Assembly: GCA_017516745.1 (NCBI GenBank)
Contig: JAFXBF010000006.1
Location: forward strand, 28,274 to 92,273
Reading direction: 5' to 3'
Source of the DNA: Clostridia bacterium
GTDB lineage: Bacteria; Bacillota; Clostridia; Oscillospirales; Acutalibacteraceae
Length of the DNA: 64,000 bases
The position numbers were made by a program, and so were the translations under genes. The notes under the pieces were generated by a model. The model had not been told where the DNA came from and made no database searches. It saw nothing but the letters and a program-made list of their open reading frames with translations. This document shows positions 2,143 through 48,465 of the stretch, piece by piece; positions within the stretch are counted from its first letter, which is position 1, and every line of letters begins with the position of its first letter.

Positions 2143-2155
2143 AAAATAATAATCA

Positions 2156-2340
2156 CCCTGCCTTGTGCGACAACTTTCGGCAATACTAACCCAACACTCT
2201 TTTTATAGGGATGCCTGCTCCGACAGCGGATTGCAGACCTCCCGCCTTTTCAGGCGGACGAAGGGAGCGTGAACCTGTTGGGAGGCGACCCACCTGCTTT
2301 TACACGCAGGTTAATATTAGCCTTGAGCGGCTTGGCGGGG
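2156..2340 (+). ncRNA. ssrS: Probable 6S RNA
   Basis: The 185-nt segment folds into one long rod. CCCTGCC at 2156-2162 closes on GGCGGGG at 2334-2340. GGCAATACTAAC at 2179-2190 pairs with GTTAATATTAGCC at 2310-2322 with one bulge and one mismatch. Further in, CTCCGACAG pairs with CTGTTGGGAG. The 3' side of the central bubble holds a small hairpin, CCCACCTGC with GCAGGTT, a feature I associate with 6S RNAs. 6S RNA mimics an open promoter and binds sigma-A RNA polymerase. There is no open frame and no SRP, RNase P or tmRNA signature. A covariance search would settle the identity. Confidence 0.7.
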
Positions 2341-2343
2341 TGA

Positions 2344-2425
2344 CCTAACGGATTTACGAGTATTTTAACGATGAGATGGCGGAAATCCTCCCCGCAAAAA
2401 ACGGGTTCGGATTATACTCGCCACC
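2344..2425. repeat. Half copy of the foldback element (family E)
   Basis: These 82 bases match 26920-27001 at 80 positions. Only one half of the element is present: one terminal arm (2405-2425) and the CTCG side of the core. Homology stops in the loop of the core hairpin, exactly where the 6S RNA sequence begins on the other side. Confidence 0.85.
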
Positions 2426-33127: not shown

Positions 33128-34036
33128 ATGGAAAACCAGAAAGCCAAGAAAGTTCTTGTTATAATCAATCCCTGTTCAGGCAGATACACACTCAAAAAAC
33201 AGCTCTGGCATATTGCCGATATGTTCACAAAGGCAGGCTTTGAAACCACCGTTTACACCACACAGAAGCGTGGCGACGCAACGGAATACGCAAAGCTCCT
33301 TGCCGACAAATTCGACCTTATTGTCTGCCGTGGCGGTGACGGCACATTCAACGAAACCGTAAACGGCGTTATTCAGTCGGGTATCGAAATACCGATTGGC
33401 TATATTCCCAGCGGCACGACTAACGATTTTGCCGCCAGCATAGGCGTACCCACAGACGCACAGAAGGCAATTGACCTCATCTGCGAGGTTGAGCCGAAAT
33501 TCCACGATATGGGTCAGATGAATAACGAGCGTTATTTCTGCTATACCGCTTCCTTCGGTATATTCACCAAAGCCTCATACTCCGTTTCCCAGTCGGCAAA
33601 AAATGTATTCGGCTATCCTGCTTACTTCCTTGCAGGTCTTAAAGAGCTCAAGGGCTTCAAGCCGTTTGCAATGAGAATTGAGTGTGATAACGTCGTTTAC
33701 GAGGGTGAATACGCCTTCGGCGCAATTTCGAGCTCACTTTCAATCGGTAACATCATCAAGTACAAGCGAGAGGACATAGGCTTTGACGACGGTCTGTTTG
33801 AGCTCAACCTTGCCAAAATGCCCCACGGCGCAAAAATGTGGACAGAAAAGGCCAAGGAAATCCTTTTGCAGCACACCTATGCCGACGATATGTTCACCCT
33901 CACCAAGGGTAGTCACTTTGTTGTAGAGTGTCTTGACTGCGAGCTTCCATGGACACTTGACGGCGAATACGGCGGAACATATAAAATTGCCGAATTCGAC
34001 TGCCGTAAGCACGCAGTAAAGGTTTACAGAAGTTAA
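33128..34036 (+). CDS. Diacylglycerol kinase-like lipid kinase (YegS/DgkB type)
   Basis: The protein has 302 residues. The nucleotide-binding motif CRGGDGTFNETVNG lies near residue 65, followed by the GYIPSGTTNDFA motif. N-terminal VLVIINPCSGR is the family start. It phosphorylates diacylglycerol or a related lipid at the inner membrane face, recycling diacylglycerol. It ends just before the small toxin locus at 34057. Confidence 0.9.
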   Translation: MENQKAKKVLVIINPCSGRYTLKKQLWHIADMFTKAGFETTVYTTQKRGDATEYAKLLADKFDLIVCRGGDGTFNETVNGVIQSGIEIPIGYIPSGTTNDFAASIGVPTDAQKAIDLICEVEPKFHDMGQMNNERYFCYTASFGIFTKASYSVSQSAKNVFGYPAYFLAGLKELKGFKPFAMRIECDNVVYEGEYAFGAISSSLSIGNIIKYKREDIGFDDGLFELNLAKMPHGAKMWTEKAKEILLQHTYADDMFTLTKGSHFVVECLDCELPWTLDGEYGGTYKIAEFDCRKHAVKVYRS

Positions 34037-34090
34037 GTTTTATGATAATAAAACTATTGACAACACAGGTAAAGCTGAATATAATAAAAG

Positions 34091-34185
34091 TGTAAGGTGT
34101 TGCCGATAGACGGTTACGCCCTCATTAATTGGAAATTAAAGATTTAACCGCCAACTTTTGCAGGGTCCGGCGGTTATTTCTTTTT
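34091..34185 (+). ncRNA. Putative antitoxin-like small RNA, locus A
   Basis: A perfect promoter (TTGACA at 34057, 17-base spacer, TATAAT at 34080) should start an RNA of about 95 nt. Its leader at 34090-34123 is identical to that at 48067-48100 except for one base. It folds by GTGTAA/TTACGC, then exposes GCCCTC. AACCGCC/GGCGGTT and a T-run form a terminator shared with the opposing toxin gene. It has no open frame of note. Confidence 0.65.
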
Positions 34186-34272
34186 ATGCTCAAGAATTGC
34201 AATAAACAACCCTACTATGCCGACAATTACGGCTGAAAACGCAAAAAGGCTTTCATATGTAACGTACTGCAT
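34174..34272 (-). CDS. Small hydrophobic toxin-like peptide, locus A
   Basis: This 32-residue peptide reads MQYVTYESLFAFSAVIVG, then a membrane helix to residue 28 and a basic end, EHKKK. The shape V-T-Y-E-x-L, one membrane span and terminal lysines matches small holin-like/TxpA-type toxins of type I systems. The ribosome binding site AGGAGGG fits the ATG at 34272 and pairs with CCCTC just upstream (CCCTC-tgaaag-GAGGG), so translation should be blocked in the free mRNA. It is transcribed toward the small RNA on the other strand, overlapping it at the shared terminator. Toxicity is inferred. Confidence 0.7.
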   Translation of the reverse strand: MQYVTYESLFAFSAVIVGIVGLFIAILEHKKK

Positions 34273-34341
34273 AAGCATCCCTCCTTTCAGAGGGCAAAGA
34301 GTGCAACCGCCTACCGTTGTAAGGCAACACCTTACCCGAGT

Positions 34342-34370
34342 ATATTAGCACAAATGTTCGTATAAGTCAA
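34342..34370 (-). promoter_or_regulatory. Promoter of the locus A peptide mRNA
   Basis: Reading the minus strand, TTGACT, a 17-base spacer and TAATAT are followed by a leader of about 65 nt that begins with GTAAGGTGTTGCC, the same sense sequence found at the start of the opposing RNA. Confidence 0.7.
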
Positions 34371-34449
34371 CATCATCTGCAAAAGAACTTAAACAAACTG
34401 CTTGACACGGCGAATTAAAAGTGATATATTGTTTTTATTATTTATATTA

Positions 34450-34712
34450 ATAACACGATGAAGCAGAATGTGTACAGCACAAGCTGTCTGCAGAGAGTCC
34501 GCCAAAAGCTGCAAGGCGGATATTCAGCCGTTGTACCGACCGCTGCCGAGTGCCTGCGAAGCCGTTGATTTTCGGATAAGCTGTGCCGTATGACTGCGTT
34601 AAGGTCGCTATGAGAGGCGTACTTTTTTTGTACGCAACACGGGTGGAACCGTGGAGTATTGTTTATTGTAATGCTTCACCCTGTATTTTTCGGGGTGGAG
34701 TATTTTTATTTT
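34450..34712 (+). promoter_or_regulatory. T-box riboswitch of thrS
   Basis: The leader contains the AGAGAG element with its GCTGCAA distal loop (about 34492-34518), the T-box sequence GGGTGGAACCG (34641-34651), and a terminator made of CTTCACCC and GGGGTGGAG followed by TATTTTTATTTT. Uncharged tRNA-Thr should favour the antiterminator. ACC triplets at 34535 and 34539 are candidate threonine specifiers, but I could not place the specifier loop with certainty. Confidence 0.93.
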
Positions 34713-34752
34713 CCGTTTAATTAAACTATTCTTCAGAAAGGATGATATAAAA

Positions 34753-48021: not shown

Positions 48022-48067
48022 TTTCAAACGCTATTGACAAAACGGTAATTTTCCCATATAATAAGGG

Positions 48068-48165
48068 TGTAAGGCGTTGCCGATAGACGGTTACGCCCTC
48101 GAAGTAAAAACAATTATTAAAGAATAACCGCTACTTTTTGGACGAAGGGGCGGTTATTTCTTTTT
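48068..48165 (+). ncRNA. Putative antitoxin-like small RNA, locus B
   Basis: A consensus promoter (TTGACA at 48034, 17-base spacer, TATAAT at 48057) should start an RNA whose first 34 nt (48067-48100) match locus A except for one base. The middle diverges, and a terminator with ACCGC/GCGGT and TTTCTTTTTT is shared with the opposing gene. Confidence 0.65.
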
Positions 48166-48228
48166 TATTGTGTATATGTAGCCTGTAGCTAATACTAAAA
48201 TAATAGCAAGCATTACAAGATATTCCAT
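48154..48228 (-). CDS. Small hydrophobic toxin-like peptide, locus B
   Basis: This 24-residue peptide begins MEYLVMLAIILVLATGY and ends IYTIKKK: one membrane span with a basic tail. Its sequence is unrelated to the locus A peptide, yet the leader, promoter spacing and terminator are conserved. The ribosome binding site GGGGGTG pairs with an upstream CCCTC (CCCTC-gcaa-GGGGG); compared with locus A the pairing partner has changed by one base and still pairs. Both observations support a real, translation-controlled peptide gene. Toxicity is inferred from this likeness. Confidence 0.65.
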   Translation of the reverse strand: MEYLVMLAIILVLATGYIYTIKKK

Positions 48229-48299
48229 ACGCACTCACCCCCTTGCGAGGGCAAAGAGTGTAACCGCCTACCGTGTTATGACAACACCTTACGCAGAAT

Positions 48300-48328
48300 A
48301 CATTAGCACAAATGTTCTGTAAAGTCAA
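48300..48328 (-). promoter_or_regulatory. Promoter of the locus B peptide mRNA
   Basis: On the minus strand, TTGACT, a 17-base spacer and TAATGT precede a leader beginning GTAAGGTGTTG, matching locus A and the opposing RNA. Confidence 0.65.
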
Positions 48329-48332
48329 GTAG

Positions 48333-48465
48333 GGGCAATTCATGAATTGCCCGCCGTAAAAGCGATATGATGGTAAAATTTCGGGCGATTCGTGAATCGC
48401 CCCTACGGGATAATATAATTAATACTGATATATTAGCAACACGGACGACCAAAGGTCGCCCCTAC
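48333..48465. repeat. Three short palindromes of the GCCCCTAC type
   Basis: GGGCAATTCATGAATTGCCC (48333-48352) is a perfect palindrome. GGGCGATTCGTGAATCGCCC followed by CTAC (48383-48406) and GGACGACC-aaa-GGTCGCCCCTAC (48443-48465) are related. They have no T-runs or open frames and look like dispersed intergenic repeats. Confidence 0.7.

What the first reader, a model, noticed from the sequence alone, without database searches (positions are those of the whole stretch)
34057..34370. Locus A: convergent RNAs with the same leader, encoding a hidden 32-residue membrane peptide
Seen: two consensus promoters face each other 314 bp apart. Both RNAs begin with GTAAGGTGTTGCC and later share GCCCTC, because the DNA between them is an imperfect inverted repeat; they meet at a shared terminator. 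The minus-strand RNA encodes a 32-residue peptide with one membrane span and its ribosome binding site sits in a CCCTC/GAGGG hairpin. Known: type I toxins of the TxpA/holin-like kind have this size and shape, and TxpA/RatA RNAs overlap at 3' ends. Inference: the plus RNA is the antitoxin. Unlike pAD1 par, whose direct repeats yield complementary RNAs, an inverted repeat gives same-sense leaders, so the plus RNA may copy the mRNA's own anti-ribosome-binding-site segment and act in trans. That architecture seems undescribed to me.
Basis: partly seen in the sequence, partly recalled or inferred. Interest (0 to 1): 0.75.

Follow-up and report, generated by a model that had tools for sequence, protein, structure and literature searches.

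The report
Gut Clostridia mirror-leader toxin-antitoxin modules
A tiny membrane peptide gene and a facing small RNA look like a toxin-antitoxin unit repeated many times in gut bacteria, and the two RNAs start alike probably because the toxin message can fold back on its own tail, which the small RNA can capture.

Summary
Locus A (34057-34370) has facing promoters, two RNAs with the same 13-nt start, a shared terminator and a 32-residue one-span peptide. It is one of 12 such loci in this genome. On reading, about 30 of 300 genomes of the family carry the layout (36 matched the model), and at least 113 stretches of named genomes, mostly Clostridia, match its plus-RNA pattern. It looks like a type I toxin-antitoxin module: in 17 genomes 55 of 58 toxin leaders have the plus RNA and the other three have broken toxins, while 11 of 76 plus RNAs persist without a toxin. 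The repeat is kept while its sequence changes. Arm differences mostly stay G-U compatible on the toxin strand (37:3, then 40:4), pointing to pairing of the toxin mRNA's 5' leader with its own read-through 3' tail. In folding calculations this tail makes the ribosome site easier to open (7.8 versus 11.2 kcal/mol with shuffled tails); holding it as if bound by the plus RNA cancels this. Transcription, toxicity and read-through are not shown. A new regulatory variant of a known kind.

The parts
34057..34085 (+). promoter of the plus (antitoxin) RNA, TTGACA-17-TATAAT
   Evidence: 12 of 12 consensus; both hexamers invariant in the 13 own-genome copies aligned
34092..34187 (+). plus RNA: hairpin leader, spacer, terminator; predicted antitoxin
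   Evidence: fold z -2.88; consensus hairpin from 13 copies; U-tract of 6 or more T in 9 in 138 of 140 loci
34092..34104 (+). repeat arm a of the plus leader, GTAAGGTGTTGCC
   Evidence: 13 of 13 complementary to 34323-34335
34105..34123 (+). conserved core GATAGACGGT and arm b TACGCCCTC of the plus leader
34146..34175 (.). shared bidirectional terminator stem-loop
34174..34272 (-). toxin ORF, 32 aa, one predicted membrane span, lysine tail
   Evidence: Hol_Tox E 0.0027; family pN/pS 0.32, crude count
34279..34294 (-). hairpin CCCTC/GAGGG holding the ribosome-binding site
   Evidence: sequence; fold; ribosome site predicted mostly paired in 66 loci
34306..34317 (-). conserved core ACGGTAGGCGGT of the toxin mRNA leader
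34323..34335 (-). repeat arm a of the toxin mRNA leader, GTAAGGTGTTGCC
34342..34370 (-). promoter of the toxin mRNA, TTGACT-17-TAATAT
   Evidence: 9 of 12 consensus with TG before the second hexamer
34092..34123 (-). proposed 3' tail of read-through toxin RNA (complement of the plus leader) that pairs with the 5' leader
   Evidence: inferred from covariation and strand asymmetry and folding; no transcript shown
48034..48062 (+). locus B: plus RNA promoter
48069..48165 (+). locus B: plus RNA
   Evidence: fold z -4.36
48154..48228 (-). locus B: toxin ORF, 24 aa
48280..48292 (-). locus B: arm a of the toxin mRNA leader, GTAAGGTGTTGTC
48300..48328 (-). locus B: toxin mRNA promoter TTGACT-17-TAATGT
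   Evidence: read

Best explanation
Locus A is a type I toxin-antitoxin module of a family common in gut and rumen Clostridia. The minus-strand mRNA makes a small membrane toxin; its ribosome site is closed by a local hairpin. The often weak toxin-direction terminator lets some transcripts read through into the complement of the plus leader. This 3' tail pairs with the mRNA's 5' leader and competes for the anti-ribosome-site segment, making the ribosome site easier to open. The plus RNA, from a better promoter, is the antitoxin: it is antisense to the shared terminator and to that tail, first meeting the mRNA at the terminator loop, then taking the tail away so that the leader closes the ribosome site again, probably with RNase III cleavage of the duplex. 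The two RNAs start alike because the antitoxin must match the leader it displaces. Shown here: layout, conservation, covariation, strand asymmetry, asymmetric loss, folding energies. Inferred: transcription, toxicity, read-through, order of events. Module claim about 0.9; specific tail-capture mechanism about 0.45.
For: Module: 12 loci in the assembly; 126 distinct peptides of 21-37 aa, all with a hydrophobic stretch, 122 with at least two K/R in the last four (after four chance ORFs were dropped by eye); pN/pS 0.32 over 142 pairs, crude count. Loss asymmetry in 17 genomes: of 63 exact toxin-leader cores 5 look by eye like chance in coding DNA, 55 of the other 58 have the plus RNA, and the 3 without it have broken toxins; 11 of 76 plus RNAs keep promoter and terminator with neither toxin leader nor ORF. 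Repeat pairing: arm a matches its own partner far better than permuted partners (19.1 versus 11.5, highest of 5000 permutations 13.2, 68 combinations; again 17.3 versus 10.4, highest 11.7, 78 further combinations). Arm differences: 37 G-U compatible on the toxin strand, 3 opposite, 8 transversions; 40, 4, 6 in the second set. Positions unpaired in the plus hairpin are still identical in 239 of 250. The arm duplex is stronger on the toxin strand in 139 of 140. Ribosome-site opening energy: native tail 7.8, shuffled 11.2, foreign 9.4, no tail 11.0 kcal/mol (134 loci); with everything downstream of the stop held unpaired 11.0. U-turn motif in the plus terminator loop 95 of 140, expected fraction 0.42.
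Against: No RNA data. The read-through transcript is not shown, and 61 of 140 toxin-direction terminators have a good U-tract. Mean unpaired probability of the ribosome site changes little (0.217 versus 0.184). A foreign tail also helps in part (9.4; native easier than foreign in 90, harder in 28 of 134). Folding of single RNAs ignores ribosomes and co-transcriptional order. The two nearly constant G/A core differences count as few events but favour the toxin strand in every duplex comparison. Loci are related, so counts are not independent; by unique context 28 to 3 and 29 to 4. The 17 genomes of the loss test were picked because they had plus-RNA hits, and only exact toxin cores were counted; genomes without plus RNA were not searched for toxins.
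Confidence: 0.5

Rival explanations
1. One reading: the plus RNA carries a copy of the mRNA's own anti-ribosome-site segment and blocks the ribosome site in trans.
For: Plus segment b pairs with the ribosome site at -7 kcal/mol or better in 61 of 68 loci; mean -10.9 against -5.9 for the plus-RNA spacer; only 0.0012 of permutations do as well as the cognate pairing.
Against: The cognate gain is small (-10.9 versus -10.2 permuted; reversed-letter control -10.0). It does not explain conservation of arm a or the G-U strand asymmetry. In some two-hairpin leaders b is not the segment facing the ribosome site (read).
Confidence: 0.15
2. Plain 3'-overlap antitoxin as in txpA/RatA: the RNAs pair at the terminator and RNase III removes the mRNA; the read-through fold-back is a hok/aapA-like safety lock that keeps full-length mRNA silent until its 3' end is trimmed.
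For: Convergent RNAs with a shared terminator; the leader pairs with the 3' tail in predicted read-through RNA (mean 0.63 per base, 66 loci); the ribosome site is mostly paired with and without the tail (unpaired 0.216 and 0.178).
Against: The tail lowers rather than raises the cost of opening the ribosome site, opposite to a lock.
Confidence: 0.25
3. The repeat is kept by DNA-level homogenisation (template switching between inverted copies) or as ends of a mobile element, with no RNA function.
For: Loci are dispersed; the same intergenic site is empty in relatives G001, G005 and G007.
Against: Predicts no strand bias, yet 37:3 and 40:4. Arms begin at the predicted transcription starts, and both promoters lie outside the repeat but belong to the conserved unit.
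Confidence: 0.05

Closest known systems
bsrG/SR4 of Bacillus subtilis
   Same: Small membrane toxin; antitoxin pairs at the mRNA 3' end and at the 3' part of an mRNA helix, and tightens ribosome-site occlusion (passages of PMC7430163)
   Different: No inverted-repeat mirror leader is mentioned in the passages read; sequence relation of the RNAs not tested
txpA/RatA of Bacillus subtilis
   Same: 3'-overlapping RNAs; ribosome site held in a short helix (PMC7430163 passages)
   Different: RatA binding leaves the ribosome-site structure unchanged in those passages; TxpA is 59 aa
par pAD1 (Fst, RNA I/RNA II)
   Same: Convergent promoters, shared bidirectional terminator, 33-residue toxin, occluded ribosome site (PMC7472228 passages)
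   Different: Direct repeats there make the 5' regions complementary; here an inverted repeat makes them alike
aapA/IsoA of Helicobacter pylori and hok
   Same: Long-range 5'-3' pairing of a toxin mRNA and, for aapA, local hairpins on the ribosome site (PMC6733600 passages)
   Different: There the fold-back is a lock removed by 3' trimming; here the antitoxin is antisense to the 3' arm itself and folding suggests the tail opens the ribosome site

Membership tests
Type I toxin-antitoxin | small hydrophobic toxin peptide | tested here: met
   126 of 126 distinct peptides hydrophobic, 21-37 aa, after four chance ORFs were dropped by eye
Type I toxin-antitoxin | antisense RNA overlapping the toxin mRNA | tested here: inconclusive
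   met by sequence: facing promoters and a shared terminator; transcription not tested
Type I toxin-antitoxin | toxin not kept without antitoxin | tested here: met
   3 of 58 leaders lack the plus RNA and all 3 have broken toxins; 17 genomes picked for having plus-RNA hits, exact cores only
Type I toxin-antitoxin | toxicity relieved by the RNA | not testable with these tools
   needs expression experiments
Pfam Hol_Tox (PF16935) | score above the curated cut-off | tested here: not met
   locus A peptide 18 bits against 23.3; 9 of 48 relatives match at E up to 0.05, best 1.1e-7, scores against the cut-off not shown for them
par/Fst | convergent promoters and bidirectional terminator | tested here: met
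   by sequence only
par/Fst | direct repeats giving complementary 5' regions | tested here: not met
   the arms are an inverted repeat
txpA/RatA and bsrG/SR4 kind | antitoxin pairs with the mRNA 3' end | tested here: inconclusive
   complementary by sequence at the shared terminator; pairing not tested
hok/aapA kind | 5'-3' long-range pairing of the toxin RNA | tested here: inconclusive
   predicted and covariation-supported for read-through RNA; read-through not shown
Rfam families | match to a known RNA family | tested here: not met
   locus A: no match at gathering; at E up to 5 one animal microRNA family far below its cut-off

The most novel reading that the evidence does not exclude
The antitoxin RNA is a molecular copy of the toxin mRNA's own leader. 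The mRNA carries a 3' tail that opens its ribosome site by pairing with that leader, and the antitoxin works as a decoy leader that captures the tail. One inverted repeat thus encodes switch, activator and antitoxin, and leader and antitoxin must evolve together in the same sense.
Probability: 0.4. Interest if true: 0.8.

Novelty: new variant of a known kind. Interest (0 to 1): 0.62.

Why it matters
These units are numerous in gut and rumen Clostridia (12 in this genome alone). Locus A has no Rfam match and no Pfam or NCBIfam hit above cut-off. If tail capture is right it is a compact RNA switch in which sense-like rather than complementary leaders give specificity. The family offers many natural variants to test it. 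They also show how very different toxin peptides share one control cassette.

Tried and rejected
Rejected: trans leader-to-leader pairing (no cognate excess). Anti-ribosome-site copy as main driver of conservation (small cognate effect). Repeat as a by-product of the leader hairpins (positions unpaired in the plus hairpin are equally matched). Transposon-end or homogenisation reading (strand bias; promoters lie outside the repeat). A third factor binding both leaders is unlikely because arms differ between loci of one genome and the bias is strand-specific.

Led nowhere: NCBIfam on the locus A peptide (none); Rfam; a search for ComI and pBS32 papers. PHROGs and PADLOC were not searched, no structure was predicted. 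No search listing named the mirror-leader layout: which cover open-licence PMC papers only, so absence from print is not established.

Row losses: one search gave 88 candidates, 75 with an ORF; 74 kept, 68 unique. In the second set 132 matches gave 126 non-redundant, 92 with the toxin core, 86 with an ORF, 78 further combinations, 4 of these without an alignable arm; it may hold genomes also present in the first set, only new leader combinations were counted. Four chance ORFs were dropped by eye before the peptide counts. Difference counts use only loci whose arms align (140 of 146); permutation tests use all. 66 of 68 loci were folded and 134. Only 48 of the 78 representative peptides were given; besides Hol_Tox, PepG1 and ComI those scans also list unrelated families with one or two members each, so weak hits of such peptides mean little. 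Of the 36 family genomes matched, six (G016, G033, G072, G105, G267, G290) show no recognisable unit on reading.

Full report
What is there. Locus A lies between a diacylglycerol-kinase-like gene (33128-34036) and the thrS leader (names recalled from sequence). A perfect promoter on the plus strand and a fair one on the minus strand face each other 314 bp apart. Both predicted RNAs start with GTAAGGTGTTGCC, share a terminator, and the minus RNA encodes a 32-residue peptide behind a ribosome site held in a CCCTC/GAGGG hairpin. Locus B at 48034-48328 repeats the layout with another peptide.

How many. The assembly (2.89 Mb, 28 contigs) holds 12 loci with a toxin, one of them with its toxin leader split by an insert, and one orphan plus RNA. 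Three peptide types share the same control cassette. A covariance model of the plus promoter and leader finds matches in 8 of 11 genomes of the genus at E up to 0.01 and 36 of 300 of the family at E up to 0.001. On reading, six of the 36 show no unit, so about 30 of 300 are real. Of the 126 non-redundant matches from both collections, 92 have the toxin core on the other strand. No Rfam family matches locus A.

Anatomy of the family. In toxin sense each unit reads: promoter, arm a, core ACGGTAGGCGGT, arm b, ribosome site, peptide, terminator CCGCC...GGCGG, then the complements of plus b, core GATAGACGGT and plus a, then the plus promoter. Arms differ widely between loci but match within a locus. 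The plus leader folds into a hairpin. The plus terminator has a strong U-tract in 138 of 140 loci, the toxin direction in 61 of 140; the plus tract partly follows from the lysine codons of the toxin.

It looks like a toxin-antitoxin unit. Peptides are 21-37 residues, hydrophobic in 126 of 126, with at least two K/R in the last four residues in 122 (four chance ORFs removed by eye). The ORF is under purifying selection, pN/pS 0.32 over 142 pairs by a crude count. Hol_Tox matches 9 of 48 diverse members at E up to 0.05 (best 1.1e-7), PepG1 7 of 48 (best 5.7e-4) and ComI 4 of 48 (best 1.1e-6). Other families also appear with one or two members. Locus A itself is below the Hol_Tox cut-off. In 17 genomes, picked because they had plus-RNA hits, 63 exact toxin-leader cores were found. 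53 have a plus RNA by coordinates, 2 more on reading, 5 look like unrelated coding DNA, and 3 lack the plus RNA and have truncated toxins. The reverse loss is common: 11 of 76 plus RNAs have promoter, leader and terminator but neither toxin leader nor ORF by automatic criteria. This fits a plus RNA that the cell cannot lose before the toxin.

Why the two leaders are alike. Arm a of the plus RNA aligns with its own mRNA at a mean score of 19.1, against 11.5 for permuted partners (highest of 5000, 13.2; 68 combinations). A second set selected without using arm a gives 17.3 against 10.4 (highest 11.7; 78 combinations). Where the two arms differ, the mRNA has G for A or T for C 37 times, the opposite 3 times, and transversions 8 times, then 40, 4 and 6. 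By unique context the ratios are 28:3 and 29:4. These changes keep G-U pairs between the toxin mRNA's leader and the complement of the plus leader on the same strand, and would be A-C mismatches on the other strand. The arm duplex is stronger on the toxin strand in 139 of 140 loci (-45.2 against -34.8 kcal/mol); the two nearly constant core differences add to this. Positions unpaired in the plus hairpin are identical in 239 of 250 cases, so the match is not a side effect of hairpins. The simplest reading is selection for pairing inside toxin-strand RNA that reads through the terminator.

What the pairing would do. In predicted read-through RNA the leader pairs with the 3' tail at 0.63 per base (66 loci). 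Opening the ribosome site costs 7.8 kcal/mol with the native tail, 11.2 with a shuffled one, 9.4 with a foreign one and 11.0 with none (134 loci). With everything downstream of the stop held unpaired, as if bound by the plus RNA, it costs 11.0, harder in 117 and easier in 10 of 134. Mean unpaired probability moves little (0.217 to 0.184), so the effect is on ease of opening, not on the ground state. This resembles SR4 acting on bsrG (PMC7430163 passages) and differs in direction from the hok/aapA lock (PMC6733600 passages). The plus terminator loop has a U-turn motif in 95 of 140 loci (expected fraction 0.42); the mRNA loop has no clear excess (50 of 140, expected 0.34).

The plus segment suits ribosome sites in general (-10.9 against -5.9 for the plus-RNA spacer) but its own only slightly better than others (permuted -10.2; reversed control -10.0), and leader-to-leader binding shows no cognate excess. 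It may contribute but does not explain the repeat.

Limits. All evidence is from sequence and folding. Transcription, toxicity, read-through and antitoxin action are not shown. Loci share ancestry, so counts overstate independence. The loss test used selected genomes.

Noticed in passing
G000:C11:127510-127592 (L012, L040): Orphan plus RNA with intact promoter, leader and terminator but no toxin; similar orphans in several relatives. They may still act on copies with the same leader.
   Followed up: partly
G000:C5:19401-19919 (L017, L034) and L297: Insert of about 280 bp with inverted-repeat ends inside the toxin leader; a different insert of the same kind sits in the toxin leader of another genome.
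   Followed up: partly
window 34060-34385 against L284, L285, L286: Relatives G001, G005 and G007 lack the element: the kinase-like gene is followed directly by the thrS leader. G002 and G006 have another gene there; five of the 11 genomes were not resolved.
   Followed up: partly
window 34440-34740: thrS leader looks like a T-box (recalled motif) but Rfam at gathering threshold reports none there.
   Followed up: no
window 48325-48460: Palindromic repeats GGGCAATTCATGAATTGCCC and GGGCGATTCGTGAATCGCCC next to locus B.
   Followed up: no
L077, L084, L090, L094, L107, L108, L121, L124, L136, L152: Tandem copies of the plus-RNA match, about 340-410 bp apart in the same orientation, in several relatives.
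   Followed up: no
window 2152-2345: 6S RNA on the plus strand, 76.8 bits.
   Followed up: no
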